A DNA stretch of 64,000 bases. Source: Chloroflexota bacterium (GTDB lineage: Bacteria > Chloroflexota > Anaerolineae > Anaerolineales > Villigracilaceae). Location of the stretch: the NCBI GenBank assembly GCA_013388855.1, contig JACAEM010000018.1, forward strand, positions 1 through 64,000, given 5' to 3'. A program made the position numbers and the translations under genes. A model generated the notes under the pieces. It did not search any database. It was not told the origin of the DNA and saw nothing but the letters and a program-made list of their open reading frames with translations. This document shows positions 8,407 through 47,064 of this stretch, piece by piece (positions within the stretch are counted from its first letter, which is position 1; each line of letters begins with the position of its first letter).

Positions 8407-9099
8407 TTATTCAGGAAGCGCGGCTTTGATCGCCGCCAATTGTTCCTGGCTGATGGGTTTTTCCTTCGCTTTTTGTCGGAAGAAATCCTTGATCTGTTTC
8501 AGTCTCATCGCCGGGATGGGTGTGTCAGCGGGTTCAATCTCCACGTTGTCGCTGGTGAAGACCATCATGGCATTGATATCAGGGATCGTAGAGTCGTCCA
8601 TTTGTTTGGAAAAAAATTTTCGAAGCGCGCGGACCTCGTTGTCTATCTCAATATCCGGTCGACCGATTCCCTCCTGCCCGAAAATGCGCATATACCACTG
8701 AAAAAATCCGCCGCCGCTCATTTGCCAGCGATTCTTCTTAAACGTCACCCGACCGCGCTGATGATAGGGAAACAGCAACCAGACCCCAGCCGGTCCCACT
8801 AGCAAGTGGGATGCAGGAGTGTTGTAGTGGTAGATGACAAATTCGTTCTGCAATCCTTTGAGTCCGGCATCCAGTTTTTCGTCCGGGCGCGGACTGCGTC
8901 CATAGCGGTTTCCCATGTACATACCAATTTGAGTCATGGTGAACCCGACAAGCAATGCGATCAGTGCATAGATGAACAGGTCGGTTCTTTGGATCGAAAT
9001 GTACATGCCGATGCCAAGCACGACCAACGCTCCAAGGCTCAACCAGTTGCCAATTTGTCCATTGCGTTTGATGAGTTTTTCGTTTTTGATAATTTTCAT
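8407..9099 (-). CDS. Hypothetical membrane-anchored protein, possibly NERD-like
   Basis: The 230-residue protein begins with two membrane segments (about 18-35 and 41-62) and continues as a soluble domain. The segment HLLVGPAGVWLLFPYHQRG resembles the core of nuclease-related (NERD) domains, but the catalytic pattern is not clear, so this is only a suggestion. AGGATC precedes the ATG weakly. It lies between dinG and plsX, on the same strand as both. Confidence 0.6.
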   Translation of the reverse strand: MKIIKNEKLIKRNGQIGNWLSLGALVVLGIGMYISIQRTDLFIYALIALLVGFTMTQIGMYMGNRYGRSPRPDEKLDAGLKGLQNEFVIYHYNTPASHLLVGPAGVWLLFPYHQRGRVTFKKNRWQMSGGGFFQWYMRIFGQEGIGRPDIEIDNEVRALRKFFSKQMDDSTIPDINAMMVFTSDNVEIEPADTPIPAMRLKQIKDFFRQKAKEKPISQEQLAAIKAALPE

Positions 9100-12896: not shown

Positions 12897-13658
12897 TTAT
12901 GCAAGGATCAAACTGCAACAGGTGACAGCGCCTTCCGCCTTTGCCAGTTCGTCCACTTGGACAACTCTTAATTTGAAGCCTTTGCTTTCAAGTATCGTGT
13001 ACGTTTTGGGGAAGGAGGCGGGAAATATGATTTTCCCGTTGACGGGGAGGCAATTGGCGGCAAATGGTTCATCCGGGTCGACGTCAATCAGGTTATATCC
13101 TTCAAAGTGTTCGGTGTTCACCCATTTGCGATTGATCAGAAGGTTGTTTTCGTCCACGCGGGTGACGGCGGTCTTCAAGTGCAGGCAATCGTGCATCTCC
13201 ACGCCGATGACGCGATAACCGTACTTGCCGAGATGCTCGTTCATTTGGTTAACTGCTGCCTGATTACTGCGTGTGGACATGCCCACGAAGATTTCCTTGC
13301 CCAGCACCAGCACGTCGCCGCCATCTACATTGGCGGGTGCGGTGACGCGCACGAGTTTGCGATAGGGAGCCAATGCCTGGGCAATGGAGTCTACTTCGGG
13401 TTTTCGGGAATCGGCTCCGGGTCGGGTGAGAAGCGCCACTTCCGGCAGGATGACCGCCGTGTCCTCCACGAAGACCGAGTCGGGCAGGTTGGGCTCGGCA
13501 GGCAATTCCAGAATGTCACATCCCAACTCTTTGAGCGCCTCGATATATCCGCGGTGTTGTGCGCAGGCGACTTCCAGGTCAATGGGGGAGCGGTCGATGT
13601 GTGTCAGCTCGCATTCATTGAAGCGCGGGCTGATATCCCTTGTGATCGCAATCGTCAT
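12897..13658 (-). CDS. Dimethylargininase-type amidinohydrolase (DDAH)
   Basis: DDAH enzymes hydrolyse methylated arginines (or close relatives) to citrulline and an amine. The 253-residue protein has the family pattern: FVEDTAV (D66), NVDGGDVL (D115), the catalytic histidine in CLHLKTAVT (H160), and the nucleophilic cysteine in AVTCCSL (C247). Its ATG shares one base with the TAA of the upstream ABC ATPase gene (TAATG), so the two are translationally coupled. The coupling to a polar amino-acid importer suggests the transporter brings in an arginine derivative for this enzyme. A related arginine deiminase-like activity is the main alternative. Confidence 0.88.
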   Translation of the reverse strand: MTIAITRDISPRFNECELTHIDRSPIDLEVACAQHRGYIEALKELGCDILELPAEPNLPDSVFVEDTAVILPEVALLTRPGADSRKPEVDSIAQALAPYRKLVRVTAPANVDGGDVLVLGKEIFVGMSTRSNQAAVNQMNEHLGKYGYRVIGVEMHDCLHLKTAVTRVDENNLLINRKWVNTEHFEGYNLIDVDPDEPFAANCLPVNGKIIFPASFPKTYTILESKGFKLRVVQVDELAKAEGAVTCCSLILA

Positions 13659-42096: not shown

Positions 42097-42167
42097 TGGG
42101 GGCTCGTCTAATGGCAGGACGACTGACTCTGGATCAGTTAGTAGTGGTTCGAATCCATTGCCCCCAG
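42097..42167 (+). tRNA. tRNA-Gln (CTG anticodon)
   Basis: The acceptor stem is TGGGGGC (42097-42103) with GCCCCCA (42160-42166), and G is the discriminator, as usual for glutamine. The anticodon stem ACTGA/TCAGT holds the loop CTCTGGA with CTG at 42129-42131. The D stem is GTC/GAC and the T loop is TTCGAAT. CCA is not encoded. Confidence 0.95.
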
Positions 42168-42171
42168 CAAG

Positions 42172-42373: not shown

Positions 42374-42712
42374 TCACTTCCTCGACCTTGACTTTTCCAC
42401 CGGCTTCTTCCACCGCAGTGTGACTTCGAAGTTCGTTTCGCCGCCCACCTTTCCAACAGCGAAGACCCCGGCTTCTCCCACCGCTTTCAGCCCAAATTTC
42501 AATTCTGCTTCATCGATCTGCAAGGCTTCGAGTTCAGCGAACATGCTTTTTAGCGAGCCTGCAATACTGGCGAATGCAACCTTGAAGGTCTTCCCAGCCT
42601 GTGCCACATCCACCCCGCCGCGAGAAGCCCTGACAATCCCGGTCGTCACTGCCTCTGACTCGACCAAAATAGTTGACCCGTCATCCAATTTGTATTCATA
42701 GTATGTCGGCAT
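42374..42712 (-). CDS. Trypsin-co-occurring domain protein (Trypco1, CU044_2847 type)
   Basis: The 112-residue protein starts MPTYYEYKLDDGSTILVE and continues with a helix (VAFASIAGSLKSMFAELE) and a beta tail ending in NFEVTLRWKKP. This fits the small Trypco1 (CU044_2847) family, named because its genes occur next to trypsin-like protease and STAND NTPase genes in predicted conflict systems. A divergent neighbour just 114 bp away encodes exactly such a protein, which strengthens the call. AGGAGG precedes the ATG. The biochemical role is unknown. Confidence 0.82.
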   Translation of the reverse strand: MPTYYEYKLDDGSTILVESEAVTTGIVRASRGGVDVAQAGKTFKVAFASIAGSLKSMFAELEALQIDEAELKFGLKAVGEAGVFAVGKVGGETNFEVTLRWKKPVEKSRSRK

Positions 42713-42826
42713 GGGATTAACCTCCTGTAATTCGTTTGTCAGGATGTATTTTAGCCGAAAACCAGTTGTAAAAAAACTACTGTTTTGTTGTACACTGTAT
42801 TTACCGAATCCAATTTTGAGGGAGAA

Positions 42827-45427
42827 ATGCCCCACCCGCTCGAGTCTGGGACTGTTCGTTGTTTTCACTCCGATGGCGCTACCAAAGGGACAGGTTTTCT
42901 TGTCTCCGACAGGCTGGTGGTTACATGCGCGCATGTCATCCAGACTTCGGACGGAACCGTTCAAGTGCAATTCGTTGGTCAAGACAAAATGATAAGCGCC
43001 AGGGTCTTGCCCGAATATTATCGCGACCCCGACCATGGCGATATTGCCTTCTTGCTCCTGGAAAGTACACCGGAAAATATCATACCATTACCCTTGGGAG
43101 ACTCCAGGCACAGCCTGTCGGGGAGTCCGTTTCGAGCCTTTGGCTACCCAGTCATTGGCAATATTATGGGCATTCATGCGCGTGGTGAGATTTTGGGAAA
43201 AGTCGCGGAAAACGATCAGGTTCTCTTGCAACTCCGATCTTCAGAATTGAATCTGGGTCACAGCGGCGCTCCGGTGTGGGACGAGAAGCGCAATGTGGTC
43301 GTGGGGATGGTGGTCAGTGTATTCAAGACTGACGCAAGTGGAAAGTTACGAGATACAGCTTTTGCGATTCCATCGGAGTCTCTGTGGCAGGTCTGCCCGG
43401 AAATACAACCGTCGGAGATTTCTCCCTACCTTGGATTGAATGCTTTTTCCGAAGAAACTGCGCAATTTTTCTTTGGGCGCGATACCCTCGTCGAGAAACT
43501 GATTAATGTTTTACGCGGTGGATGCCGTTTTCTGGCGGTGTTTGGCCCCTCGGGATGTGGAAAATCATCAGTTGTGAGAGCGGGTCTGCTTCCGGCGTTG
43601 GAAAAGGGTCAATTACCGGAGAGTCAGAAATGGGCACAGGTCAAGATGCGCCCGGCGGATGATCCCTTCATGCAGATGAAGAACGCAGGATTGAATCCGA
43701 TTGACGTCAAGGAATATTTGAAGTCGCACCCGGGGATGGAACGCATGGTGTTATTCATCGATCAATTCGAGGAGTTGTTCACACTCTGCCCGGACGATAT
43801 CCGGGAACGCTTCACGCGTGAACTGGCGCTTGCTCTGGAAGACCCGAAGTTGATTCTCATCCTGTCCATGCGGGACGATTTCTATAGCGCCTTCCATTCC
43901 GCGGCTTCACCATTGGCGGAGTCGAAATTTCTGCGGGTCGAGAACGTGCCTGGGGTGCTGACACAGGACGAATTGATGGCAATGATCGAGCGTCCCGCCG
44001 GTGTGGTCGGTGCTGCGGTCGAGCCGGGACTTGGCGAATTGATCATCAAAGATTTGACCCATGACGGCAGTGTGCGCAGTTCATCCCTGCCGTTGTTGGA
44101 GTTTGCACTGACACAGTTGTGGATTAAGCGCCGCGAGGGTCGACTGACGCATGATGCTTACCGGGAGATCGGCGGAGTGACGGGAAGCCTGGCGCGATGG
44201 GCGAATGATGCCTACAGTGAGTTGTCCGAAACACACCGGCGTGTTGCCGAAGATTTATTGACATCCTTGGTGCATCTCGGCGACGAGTCGCAGGGATTGC
44301 CGGACACTCGAAGGCGCAGGCAGATTGCTGAGTTGAGTGCTTCCGAGTCACAACAACATGTGATGAAGCATCTGGCAGATCGCCGGTTGATCGTCGCCGA
44401 TGGAAACACGGTTGAGTTGATCCACGATGCCTTGTTGAGTGAGTGGGATGAATTAAAGCGCTGGATTCGAGATAACCGCCATAATCTGCGATTGAGGGAA
44501 AAATTGGCGGACTTGTCCAGTCAGTGGGAGGCATCTGGTAGAAAAGATGTTAGTTTGCTTTATAAAGGCTGGCGGTTGAGGGAGGTCGTTGCCTTATCGG
44601 GCAAGTTTACCTTTACCGTTCTTGAGCAGGATTTCATCGCAGCAAGTATCAGGGCCGAACGTCGCCAAAGGCTGCACCAGATTGGGACCGTGCTGGCTTA
44701 CACGGCTCTTTTTATTGTTATCATCGTTTTGGGACCTGGACGATGGGCATATTATGAGTATTTGCGGCAGAAAGTCATCAGAGAAAGTCCGTTGGCGCAT
44801 CTGGAAGGCGGAGAGATCATCTTTGGCACTGATTCCTCGACCAGATTTGAGGATGAGCCGGCGTTGGAAAAGAGGAAGGTCGATTCTTTCAGCATCGAAA
44901 CCATGGAGGTGACGAACGTGCATTACAGAGTCTGTGTTGAAGTCGACGTCTGTGATGAGCCCAAAGATACTGAATTCTATGACCAACGCCGGTTTGACCT
45001 GCATCCGGTGGTCCATGTAACGCTCGAACAGGCAGAGACCTATTGTGCGTGGCTTGGACGCCGTTTGCCAGACACGTACGAGTGGGAGCTTGCAGCACGC
45101 GGTCGGGATGGTCGTCCCTGGCCTTGGGATGGGGATGAATTTCCAACCGTCAACCACGCTAATGTGATCCTCCTGCTTGATTCCGCTTCCAATGAATGGT
45201 ACGCGCCCACGGGCACCGAGCAGGTTGGATCGTATCCATTGGGAAGGACACCAGAAGGTGTGTATGATTTATTGGGGAATGTATGGGAGTGGACAACCAC
45301 CCCAATGGAAACTGCCTATATCCAGAGAGGAGGCGCTTGGGATTCGGTTATGTATCGAATAACAAACATTCGCGTATCTGTCGACAAACAGCCGGATTCG
45401 GCTGTCGGTTTTCGTTGTGCTCGGTAA
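42827..45427 (+). CDS. Trypsin-like protease-STAND NTPase-TM-FGE-fold protein
   Basis: The 866-residue protein has four parts. Residues 1-190 are a trypsin-like serine protease with triad H36 (TCAHV), D72 (HGDIAF) and S146 (GHSGAPV). Residues about 210-600 are a STAND NTPase of the nSTAND1 kind, opening YLGLNAFSEETAQFFFGR, with Walker A GPSGCGKSS at 240-248 and Walker B VLFIDQFEELF near 312. A membrane helix follows at about 622-643. Residues 665-866 are a formylglycine-generating-enzyme-type domain (RLPDTYEWELAARG, GVYDLLGNVWEW, RGGAW, GFRCAR). STAND proteins switch on upon sensing a trigger; here the protease would be the output. The ATG at 42827 has GAGGGAG upstream; the TTG at 42785 does not. 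Confidence 0.92.
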   Translation: MPHPLESGTVRCFHSDGATKGTGFLVSDRLVVTCAHVIQTSDGTVQVQFVGQDKMISARVLPEYYRDPDHGDIAFLLLESTPENIIPLPLGDSRHSLSGSPFRAFGYPVIGNIMGIHARGEILGKVAENDQVLLQLRSSELNLGHSGAPVWDEKRNVVVGMVVSVFKTDASGKLRDTAFAIPSESLWQVCPEIQPSEISPYLGLNAFSEETAQFFFGRDTLVEKLINVLRGGCRFLAVFGPSGCGKSSVVRAGLLPALEKGQLPESQKWAQVKMRPADDPFMQMKNAGLNPIDVKEYLKSHPGMERMVLFIDQFEELFTLCPDDIRERFTRELALALEDPKLILILSMRDDFYSAFHSAASPLAESKFLRVENVPGVLTQDELMAMIERPAGVVGAAVEPGLGELIIKDLTHDGSVRSSSLPLLEFALTQLWIKRREGRLTHDAYREIGGVTGSLARWANDAYSELSETHRRVAEDLLTSLVHLGDESQGLPDTRRRRQIAELSASESQQHVMKHLADRRLIVADGNTVELIHDALLSEWDELKRWIRDNRHNLRLREKLADLSSQWEASGRKDVSLLYKGWRLREVVALSGKFTFTVLEQDFIAASIRAERRQRLHQIGTVLAYTALFIVIIVLGPGRWAYYEYLRQKVIRESPLAHLEGGEIIFGTDSSTRFEDEPALEKRKVDSFSIETMEVTNVHYRVCVEVDVCDEPKDTEFYDQRRFDLHPVVHVTLEQAETYCAWLGRRLPDTYEWELAARGRDGRPWPWDGDEFPTVNHANVILLLDSASNEWYAPTGTEQVGSYPLGRTPEGVYDLLGNVWEWTTTPMETAYIQRGGAWDSVMYRITNIRVSVDKQPDSAVGFRCAR

Positions 45428-45446
45428 TAGTCGAAAGGAAAAAACG

Positions 45447-46316
45447 ATGGAAATCACTTTTAATCCATTCCTGTTAGTCCTGATCCTCGTGGCGGTCTTG
45501 ATTTTGGTGCTATTTCTGTTATGGCTTTATGGTGAATTCTTAAAGAAGAAGTATTTTGATCACGCTGTAGACTATATGTTGCAGCCGGAAAGAGCGCCCC
45601 AGCCTGTAACGACGTGGACGCCGGTCTCGGCTCCGGACGCAAATGGAGTTTACACTTCCACTGCTACGGCGCCCTTGGATGACACCAACGAACAAATCGG
45701 CTTGGACATACGATGCAATGATTTGATGGAATACGAGGAATTTACCAGGAATGTGAAAGTTCGGTTTAGTCCAATTTACGAACCGCCGCCTCCCAACCCC
45801 TTTGACAGCCTTCTCAAAACCCTGAGTCTCAAGCGTGGCTTGAAGAGAGATATGGCTAAACAACTTGCTGTTACGGAAAGAGTGGTTGGAAAAATCCCTG
45901 TAGAGGAGGATTCCAGCGAAGAGGAAGTAGGCCCGGAACTTCTCCTGCAGTTTGGAGTGTTGGACCAAACCCGGGGGCAGTATGGAGCGGCAGCGGAAGA
46001 AAGAAAAGAATACTATGCCGTCGCCTTTAATATCGACCCTACGATTCGACGGGAACATGCGATCAATCAATGCCCCAGACCGAGAAGATGCAAGTGCAAT
46101 GTCAGGCATACCTACTCGTCAACGGAAGCGAATATCAGGGTGACGGTTACCGTATCTGTTGGCGCTGTCGGAGCAGCCGCCTCGAATGTATCTGCCGGCG
46201 GCACAGCCACAATCACTATTGCGAATCCTACCCAGATCACAAAGAGAATGGTGATCAGCGGCAAACGCGCGGGCGATAATACATACCGCCTATCTGGGAC
46301 GTGGAACAAAGCATGA
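45447..46316 (+). CDS. Membrane-anchored protein of unknown function, partner of the STAND protein
   Basis: The 289-residue protein has one N-terminal membrane segment (about 8-33), then a proline-rich linker and a long soluble region with no family I know. The middle (about 130-200) is charged with an acidic run (VEEDSSEEEVG), and the part around 220-240 has two cysteines within CPRPRRCKC. The last 60 residues are Thr/Val/Ala-rich and strand-like. It starts 19 bp after the protease-STAND gene with AAAGGA upstream, so it is almost surely cotranscribed. Confidence 0.7.
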   Translation: MEITFNPFLLVLILVAVLILVLFLLWLYGEFLKKKYFDHAVDYMLQPERAPQPVTTWTPVSAPDANGVYTSTATAPLDDTNEQIGLDIRCNDLMEYEEFTRNVKVRFSPIYEPPPPNPFDSLLKTLSLKRGLKRDMAKQLAVTERVVGKIPVEEDSSEEEVGPELLLQFGVLDQTRGQYGAAAEERKEYYAVAFNIDPTIRREHAINQCPRPRRCKCNVRHTYSSTEANIRVTVTVSVGAVGAAASNVSAGGTATITIANPTQITKRMVISGKRAGDNTYRLSGTWNKA

Positions 46317-46354: not shown

Positions 46355-46362
46355 GAAGGTTG

Positions 46363-47064
46363 ATGCGAGGCCTAAAGTCTATAACCGATCTTGCCCCGGC
46401 CGATATTCGCGGGCTGTATGCCGGATTTGATTCCCCAATCTCCACGCTCGATTGCGGGAAAAAATGCGCACCTCACAACCCGGGCGGCAAGCCGTTCTGT
46501 TGCGACATCTGTCATGCTGTTCCTGCCGCCTACAAAAGCGAGTGGAACTATCTCGAATCGAATACCGACTTGTGGCATAAATGGCGCGGCAACGAATGTG
46601 ATGAAACGACTACACAGGATCGTATTCGCATTAAAGCAGATATACCAAAGAATATGATCCTGCTTGCCTGCCTGGGTCCGGACCGGTGCCAGCGCGATTT
46701 CCGCGCTTTCAGTTGCCGGCAGTTCCCGTTCTTTCCTTATGTGACATCCAACTATCGGTTTATCGGGCTAGCGTATGAGTGGGAGTTTGAGATGAAATGC
46801 TGGGTAATCAGTAACCTGCATCAAGTGTCCCGAAAATATCGCGAAGAGTTTATCGGAACGTATGACCATCTTTTCTCACTGTTTCAGGATGAGTTCGAGG
46901 ATTACGCATACCATTCTTGGAGGATGCGCGAACATTTTGGCAGGCAAAGGAGGCGTATTCCTCTGCTACATCGAAATGGAAGGACCTGCCTGATCAGCCC
47001 AGCAAGCGAACGAATCCGATTTGTCGAACCAATGAGACTGCCGAAGTTCGGGTTTTACAAATAA
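46363..47064 (+). CDS. YkgJ-like cysteine-cluster protein
   Basis: The 233-residue protein has a cysteine-rich start, with CGKKCAPH then PFCCDICHA, and later CLGPDRCQ and FSCRQFPFFPY. This fits the YkgJ-type proteins, thought to bind zinc or an iron-sulfur cluster. The rest is rich in aromatic residues. Function is unknown. The ATG at 46363 is chosen over the adjacent TTG at 46360; AAGG is only 4 nt upstream. It ends 4 bp before a convergent gene, and a link to the STAND genes is uncertain. Confidence 0.68.
   Translation: MRGLKSITDLAPADIRGLYAGFDSPISTLDCGKKCAPHNPGGKPFCCDICHAVPAAYKSEWNYLESNTDLWHKWRGNECDETTTQDRIRIKADIPKNMILLACLGPDRCQRDFRAFSCRQFPFFPYVTSNYRFIGLAYEWEFEMKCWVISNLHQVSRKYREEFIGTYDHLFSLFQDEFEDYAYHSWRMREHFGRQRRRIPLLHRNGRTCLISPASERIRFVEPMRLPKFGFYK

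What the first reader, a model, noticed from the sequence alone, without database searches (positions are those of the whole stretch)
42374..46316. Protease-STAND conflict island with a Trypco1 partner and an unknown membrane protein
A small Trypco1-type gene faces, across 114 bp, a gene that joins a trypsin-like protease (H36, D72, S146), a STAND NTPase with intact Walker A and B, a membrane helix and an FGE-fold domain. A second membrane-anchored gene of unknown family follows by 19 bp. The Trypco1 link to trypsin/STAND systems is known from comparative genomics; that this set acts as one defence or programmed-response system is inference. The domain order would put the protease and NTPase inside the cell and the FGE fold outside or near the membrane.
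Basis: partly seen in the sequence, partly recalled or inferred. Interest (0 to 1): 0.82.

Follow-up and report, generated by a model that had tools for sequence, protein, structure and literature searches.

The report
Membrane protease-STAND receptor with partner genes
A bacterium, probably a Chloroflexota, carries a three-gene cassette that looks like a membrane-spanning alarm receptor with a protease inside and a lectin-like sensor outside; two of the genes match a known kind of predicted immune system, and the third belongs to a small protein family, apparently not described before, that keeps company with this kind of receptor.

Summary
42374-42712(-) is Trypco1 (70.8 bits). 42827-45427(+) is Trypsin_2 + nSTAND1 + one hydrophobic helix + FGE fold, with intact triad and Walker motifs. 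45447-46316(+) has no meaningful match in Pfam, NCBIfam, PADLOC, PHROGs or PDB. STAND-FGS proteins with trypsin (PMC8195603) and Trypco1-trypsin pairs (PMC7159879) are published. No diversity-generating retroelement was found. The third gene appears new: not an orphan but a fast-diverging family of 7 (leave-one-out E 6e-6 to 5e-20). In the 5 whose upstream gene is visible it follows an nSTAND1-helix-FGE gene, but 4 of these were found by looking there, and 6 of 11 nSTAND1-FGE genes lack it. It persists with a TIR effector and is absent beside a same-genus trypsin-nSTAND1-WD40 gene. I read it as a sensor-side accessory. Immune function is inferred, untested.

The parts
42097..42168 (+). tRNA-Gln (CTG) at the right edge of the glnS - orf41703 - tRNA-Gln block; the cassette begins about 200 bp downstream
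   Evidence: ARAGORN
42374..42712 (-). Trypco1 protein, 112 aa
   Evidence: PF19493 70.8 bits, NF041216 46.4 bits
42713..42826 (.). 114-bp divergent intergenic region
   Evidence: coordinates; the nearest promoter-like match (42673-42702, +) overlaps the start of the Trypco1 gene; 7 such matches in the region against 3.7 expected
42827..45427 (+). 866-aa trypsin-like protease - nSTAND1 NTPase - helix - FGE-fold protein
   Evidence: Pfam; motifs; alignment with two full-length relatives
42887..43309 (+). Trypsin_2 domain (residues 21-161), triad H36/D72/S146
   Evidence: triad invariant in 3 of 3 aligned proteins
43424..44548 (+). nSTAND1 domain (residues 200-574), Walker A at 240, Walker B at 309
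   Evidence: 348.9 bits
44681..44737 (+). predicted membrane helix (residues 619-637)
   Evidence: Kyte-Doolittle mean 2.28 over 19 residues
44801..45424 (+). FGE-sulfatase / C-type-lectin-fold domain (residues 659-866); no cysteine between residues 741 and 863, so probably not a formylglycine-generating enzyme
   Evidence: 118.1 bits; best PDB relative SUMF2; cysteine positions
45447..46316 (+). 289-aa third protein: N-terminal helix, poorly conserved middle, C-terminal part with an 'IDP' motif and ending near 'YRLSGTW', predicted mostly beta with low confidence; member of a newly recognised partner family

Best explanation
The cassette is a membrane-anchored STAND receptor of the known STAND-FGS conflict-system class. 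Shown by sequence: a protease with an intact triad, an NTPase with intact Walker motifs, a single hydrophobic helix and an FGE (lectin-fold) domain without the expected active cysteines, in one chain. Inferred: the FGE domain sits outside the cytoplasm and binds a ligand of an invader or neighbour, the signal crosses the membrane, the nSTAND1 domain binds ATP and oligomerises, and the cytoplasmic trypsin-like domain is switched on to cleave cell proteins, ending in dormancy or death. Trypco1 belongs to the protease module, most likely as its co-made inhibitor or adaptor. The third gene belongs to the sensor module: it accompanies the nSTAND1-helix-FGE architecture with a trypsin or a TIR effector, so it is most likely an accessory of sensing (co-receptor, ligand presenter or gate) and not the protease's substrate.
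For: Domain content and motifs. Trypco1 within 3 kb in 17 of 20 trypsin-nSTAND1 loci against 1 of 60 without trypsin (Fisher p=1.9e-13); in all 17 directly upstream on the same strand, end-to-start gaps -182 to +51 bp with mechanically chosen starts. These 80 loci were fetched without regard to Trypco1, are the best 80 of 580, and are not independent (many Streptomyces). Partner family: leave-one-out HMM E 6.4e-6 for the window protein and 8.9e-9 to 5.1e-20 for the other six; best of 200 shuffles per member at most 8.0 bits. Partner directly 3' (gaps 10 to 173 bp) of an nSTAND1-helix-FGE gene in 5 of 5 members whose upstream gene is visible. Effector swap: G477 has TIR-nSTAND1-FGE plus partner. 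Sensor swap: same-genus G011 has Trypco1 + trypsin-nSTAND1-WD40 and no partner in 18 kb. None of 22 distinct FGE genes (440 aa or more, hand-picked) without a detected nSTAND1 has a partner in its locus. Sensing by FGS domains and N-terminal trypsin or TIR on STAND-FGS proteins are proposed in PMC8195603 (section 7 read).
Against: No experiment. Four of the five adjacency cases were found by reading what lies behind nSTAND1-FGE genes or their like, and the fifth is the finding itself, so adjacency is built in; the two members found blind (G618; L162) sit at contig starts and their upstream gene cannot be seen. 6 of 11 distinct nSTAND1-FGE genes have no member of the family behind them, one of them (L114) with a helix; two Nostoc genes have other small genes there. 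Location of the partner is inconsistent: a lipobox-like start by eye in G041, an N-terminal helix in the window and G477, neither in G065 and G063; in the window protein the positive charges follow the helix, which would point its soluble part inwards. Structure models of the partner are poor (mean pLDDT 40.6 and 45.1). G065's trypsin-nSTAND1-FGE gene shows no Trypco1 in its 6.6-kb contig. Of 17 other Trypco1 loci in 100 relatives, only 6 have a clear trypsin gene directly adjacent.
Confidence: 0.58

Rival explanations
1. The third protein is the dedicated substrate or pro-effector of the protease, as the gated nuclease is of the STAND protease in AVAST type 1 (Avs1a/Avs1b).
For: Protease-partner pairs of this logic are shown for AVAST and Hachiman (PMC12799240, abstract and section 7 read). 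The trypsin domain resembles the protease parts of RT-Protease_XI (44.2 bits) and Avs1b (38.9 bits) in PADLOC. The partner follows the protease gene in the window, G041 and G065.
Against: The partner also follows a TIR-nSTAND1-FGE gene with no trypsin domain. It is absent behind the trypsin-nSTAND1-WD40 gene of G011. The members scanned show no meaningful match to nuclease or other effector families (Pfam; PADLOC for the window protein only; PHROGs for six of seven).
Confidence: 0.15
2. Trypco1 is the protease's substrate and the effector, released by cleavage, and not an inhibitor or adaptor.
For: Tight coupling to the protease gene (17 of 20); small protein made with the protease.
Against: No trypsin gene was recognised beside Trypco1 at 8 of 17 other loci in relatives (phmmer over the locus; one neighbour each by Pfam). 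PMC10907252 calls Trypco1 an adapter (passages read).
Confidence: 0.2
3. The cassette is not immune but a signalling or stress receptor, for example for envelope stress or cell-cell signals.
For: Predicted membrane topology with an outside lectin-like sensor; no mobile-element family among the six locus proteins scanned; the genome holds other FGE-domain matches (6 places with the large protein as query, itself included).
Against: Accessory: Trypco1 in 2 of 18 genus genomes and the third gene in 1; lies between two blocks conserved in the genus; domain set typical of predicted conflict systems (PMC8195603, PMC7159879).
Confidence: 0.25
4. The FGE domain is a target of a diversity-generating retroelement.
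For: Such FGS/CLec targets are common in STAND conflict systems (PMC10907252 passages; PMC8195603 section 7).
Against: The only RVT_1 match in the genome lies in a CRISPR locus beside Cas1, Cas6 and RAMP genes; no template-like copy of the 3' end of the gene in the assembly (best other hit 19 bp). The assembly is in 46 contigs, 99.24% complete.
Confidence: 0.03

Closest known systems
STAND NTPase-FGS lectin conflict systems (Kaur et al. 2021, PMC8195603; section 7 and passages read)
   Same: nSTAND1 or other NTPase with C-terminal FGS domain and N-terminal effector such as trypsin or TIR
   Different: that text speaks of intracellular sensing and frequent DGR linkage; here a helix separates NTPase and FGE in all five partner-bearing genes, no DGR was found, and an extra 3' gene follows that the text I read does not mention
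Trypco1-trypsin pairs of VMAP ternary systems (Kaur et al. 2020, PMC7159879; passages read)
   Same: Trypco1 gene next to a trypsin-like peptidase gene; the paper also notes a STAND NTPase with N-terminal trypsin in NucA systems
   Different: no MoxR, vWA or VMAP among the six locus proteins scanned; peptidase fused to nSTAND1 and FGE; Trypco1 divergent here, against directly upstream in 17 of 17 compared loci, though another divergent case with one gene between is L033
AVAST type 1 (Avs1a/Avs1b; PMC12799240, abstract and section 7 read)
   Same: trypsin-like protease fused to a STAND NTPase
   Different: Avs1b profile matches only the protease part (34.8 bits against a cut-off of 1500); no nuclease partner recognised
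DGR-diversified STAND antigen sensors (Dore et al. 2024, PMC10907252; passages and section 14 read)
   Same: nSTAND1 with C-terminal FGE/CLec domain; clade 5D targets sometimes with N-terminal peptidase or TIR; some sensors predicted periplasmic
   Different: DGR present there; in DGR 6 the protease is a separate gene

Membership tests
Trypco1 (PF19493) | profile match above curated cut-off | tested here: met
   70.8 bits against 24.6
Trypco1 (PF19493) | gene next to a trypsin-like peptidase gene | tested here: met
   114 bp from the Trypsin_2 gene
STAND-FGS conflict protein | STAND NTPase with intact Walker motifs | tested here: met
   nSTAND1 348.9 bits; Walker A/B
STAND-FGS conflict protein | C-terminal FGS (FGE) domain | tested here: met
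   PF03781 118.1 bits
STAND-FGS conflict protein | N-terminal effector or EAD | tested here: met
   Trypsin_2 64.2 bits, triad intact
STAND-FGS conflict protein | protection against invaders | not testable with these tools
   needs experiment
DGR target protein | DGR reverse transcriptase and template repeat in the genome | tested here: not met
   draft assembly, so a gap cannot be excluded
AVAST type 1 (Avs1b) | full-length Avs1b profile above cut-off | tested here: not met
   34.8 bits against 1500
VMAP/MoxR-vWA ternary system | MoxR and vWA genes | tested here: inconclusive
   Pfam scan of six proteins at the locus found neither; other window genes were not scanned
Formylglycine-generating enzyme | active-site cysteine pair (position recalled, not from a call) | tested here: not met
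   in residues 655-866 cysteines only at 703, 709, 740 and 864

The most novel reading that the evidence does not exclude
The third gene founds a new family of dedicated co-receptors for transmembrane nSTAND1-FGE receptors: a bacterial receptor/co-receptor pair that reads signals outside the cytoplasm and can be fitted inside with either a protease (plus Trypco1) or a TIR effector.
Probability: 0.35. Interest if true: 0.68.

Novelty: new variant of a known kind. Interest (0 to 1): 0.52.

Why it matters
PMC8195603 describes FGS domains of these systems as intracellular sensors; PMC10907252 already predicts that some STAND-CLec sensors reach the periplasm. A STAND receptor with a lectin-fold sensor outside, a protease inside and a co-evolving accessory would be closer in plan to a surface receptor. 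The apparent split into an effector module (trypsin + Trypco1, or TIR) and a sensor module (FGE + third protein) would make the unknown role of Trypco1 and the input of STAND-FGS systems testable in one small cassette.

Tried and rejected
DGR diversification: rejected. Third gene as a single-genome orphan: suggested (no credible relative), then rejected once genes downstream of related STAND genes were read and tested. Hit G204 for the third protein (E=0.007) lies in an unrelated 784-aa protein; discarded. Integration into the tRNA-Gln: no second copy of the tRNA 3' end in the window and no integrase among the six locus proteins scanned; placement beside the tRNA may be coincidence. Fold of the third family: models too poor; Foldseek matches of the G065 partner (best E 7.4e-5, TM below 0.6) are not interpreted. 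Partner profile A4 could not be scanned in viral contigs; A2 gave no relative there; the G477 partner gave none in plasmids, and no plasmid place covers 80% of the large protein. Paper searches that could have shown the third gene; no listing pointed to it. I read parts of four papers only (PMC7159879, PMC8195603, PMC10907252, PMC12799240); the library holds open-licence papers only and supplements could not be read, so 'not described before' is limited to that. Rows set aside before counts: duplicate loci of one gene (L040, L096 with L072, L204, L205, L206, L058, L228, L229) counted once in the family and FGE counts, while L096 stays among the 80; L021 (Trypco1 below cut-off) left out of the 17; FGE genes under 440 aa left out of the 22.
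Full report
The window is the first 64000 bases of contig C34 of a 4.03-Mb, 46-contig genome, 99.24% complete. The best named relatives of the large protein over its trypsin-nSTAND1 part are Anaerolineae, so I take the host to be a Chloroflexota bacterium; this is inference.

Check of the observation. The Trypco1 gene (42374-42712, minus strand) matches PF19493 with 70.8 bits (cut-off 24.6). The 866-aa protein (42827-45427) matches Trypsin_2, nSTAND1 (348.9 bits) and FGE-sulfatase in that order. The third protein (45447-46316) matches nothing in Pfam, PADLOC or PHROGs, nothing in the PDB at E up to 10, and one NCBIfam model at chance level (12.6 bits against 600). H36, D72, S146, Walker A (240) and Walker B (309) are present and unchanged at the key positions in the two full-length relatives. 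A helix at 619-637 separates NTPase and FGE. The gaps of 114 and 19 bp are exact.

The FGE domain is probably a binding domain. Its closest solved relative is SUMF2. Between residues 741 and 863 there is no cysteine, where formylglycine-generating enzymes carry their active cysteines; that position is recalled, not looked up. No DGR serving it was found: the single RVT_1 match of the genome lies in a CRISPR locus with Cas1, Cas6 and two RAMP proteins and an array of about 30 repeats, and a 178-bp query of the gene's 3' end finds no second copy (best other hit 19 bp).

Genome context. glnS was found in 15 of 17 other genus genomes. Of the 15, 14 loci were fetched: glnS matched in 14, orf41703 in 9, tRNA-Gln in 9; 2 loci were cut short beside glnS, 2 (L089, L090) have a tRNA-Leu after orf41703, and 1 (L093) no tRNA there. 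No locus showed Trypco1, trypsin-nSTAND1 or the third gene. On the right, orf47069 was found in 15 of 17 others, smpB beside it in 14 of 15 (one cut short), orf46360 in 1 of 15, and none of the three cassette genes in these 1.5-kb flanks. In G011 glnS and orf47069 lie about 330 kb apart. The cassette thus sits between two stretches that are each conserved but need not be neighbours. No repeat of the tRNA end was found in the window.

Trypco1 goes with the protease. The 80 loci (best 80 of 580) were fetched with the large protein's profile only. Trypco1 lies within 3 kb of 17 of 20 trypsin-nSTAND1 genes and of 1 of 60 nSTAND1 genes without trypsin; that one (L139) looks caspase-like by eye. The three trypsin loci without it are L096, L100 and L106. 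In the 17 it is directly upstream on the same strand. The loci are partly related to each other, so the p-value (1.9e-13) overstates independence. The reverse is weaker: among 100 relatives, Trypco1 over its cut-off occurs at 17 other loci, with a clear trypsin gene directly adjacent in 6 (L023, L024, L030, L034, L036, L037), near in 2 (L032 at 3.7 kb; L033, divergent with one gene between), a sub-cut-off trypsin match in 1 (L038), and none recognised in 8, where only one neighbour each was scanned by Pfam.

The third gene is a family. Full-length trypsin-nSTAND1-FGE genes were found in two other genomes, G041 (L069) and G065 (L072, same contig as L096). Each is followed by a small gene whose end resembles the window's third protein. 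Reading behind other nSTAND1-FGE genes gave two more, G063 (L079) and G477 (L186). Pairwise BLAST: G477 against G041 4e-13, G063 against G065 6e-17, window against G477 8e-4; the window protein against G041 and G065 is not significant. A profile of five found one more blind, G618 (E 5.5e-18), among 396 class genomes, and only known members among 400 phylum genomes. The two samples overlap; G041 and G065 appear in neither list, and I cannot tell whether they were sampled or missed, so sensitivity is uncertain. A profile of six found L162 blind in loci already held. Leave-one-out tests give E 6.4e-6 (window) to 5.1e-20, each in a set of 10632 sequences with 200 shuffles of the tested protein. 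The members share an 'IDP' motif (seen by eye in L162) and a C-terminal part predicted as strands at low confidence.

Context of the family. Of 7 members, 5 show their upstream gene, and in all 5 it is an nSTAND1-helix-FGE gene, 10 to 173 bp away; the other 2 start at contig ends. The window case is the finding itself and the other four were found by position, so this count is not blind. Of 11 distinct nSTAND1-FGE genes in hand, 5 have the partner and 6 do not; 3 of the 6 lack a helix, 2 (Nostoc) have a helix and other small genes behind them, and 1 (L114) has a helix and no such gene. None of 22 FGE genes of 440 aa or more without a detected nSTAND1 has the partner in its locus. G477 carries TIR in place of trypsin and keeps the partner. 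G011, in the window's genus, has Trypco1 and trypsin-nSTAND1 with WD40 repeats and no partner. The effector of G063 is cut off by the contig start. I therefore place the third protein on the sensing side, on the strength of one effector swap and one sensor swap. Its cellular location is not consistent across the family, which weighs against a simple outside co-receptor.

Literature. PMC8195603 (section 7 read; passages) describes STAND-FGS proteins with N-terminal trypsin or TIR and names nSTAND1. PMC7159879 (passages) names Trypco1. PMC10907252 (passages; section 14) places some STAND-CLec sensors in the periplasm, so outside sensing by STAND proteins has been predicted before. PMC12799240 (abstract and section 7) shows a STAND-fused protease activating a partner nuclease. 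None of the passages I read mentions the third gene.

Verdict. A real, accessory, predicted transmembrane STAND receptor cassette: two genes of known kinds and one of a newly recognised small family. Function, topology and interaction are inferred.

Noticed in passing
L068 (G000:C13:1-14000): CRISPR locus with about 30 repeats and an RVT_1 reverse transcriptase gene between Cas1 and Cas6, with RAMP (type III-like) genes; the only reverse transcriptase found in the genome at E up to 0.001.
   Followed up: partly
L101:8328-8657 and 13163-13525 (Nostoc sp. FACHB-280): Two nSTAND1-helix-FGE genes (CHAT-like N-termini by eye), each followed by a different small gene without a meaningful Pfam match; possibly analogous partners.
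   Followed up: partly
L139 (Lyngbya sp. HA4199-MV5): A caspase-like (by eye) nSTAND1 gene with a weak Trypco1 match on the opposite strand 126 bp away, a layout like that of the window.
   Followed up: no
L171 (Anaerolineae UWPOB_ANAER4), about 8510-8815: Behind two nSTAND1-FGE genes lies a short open frame that looks like an FGE end rich in asparagine codons, reminiscent of a DGR template repeat.
   Followed up: no
window 46360-47064: Cysteine-bearing 234-aa protein without a Pfam match; a 72% identical gene lies beside the same neighbour in G005 (L234), in 1 of 15 genus loci checked.
   Followed up: partly
L026, L028, L029, L031: Trypco1 genes without a recognised trypsin gene; the one neighbour scanned in each is a glycosyltransferase, a GSDH-PKD protein (twice) or a TIM-barrel protein.
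   Followed up: no
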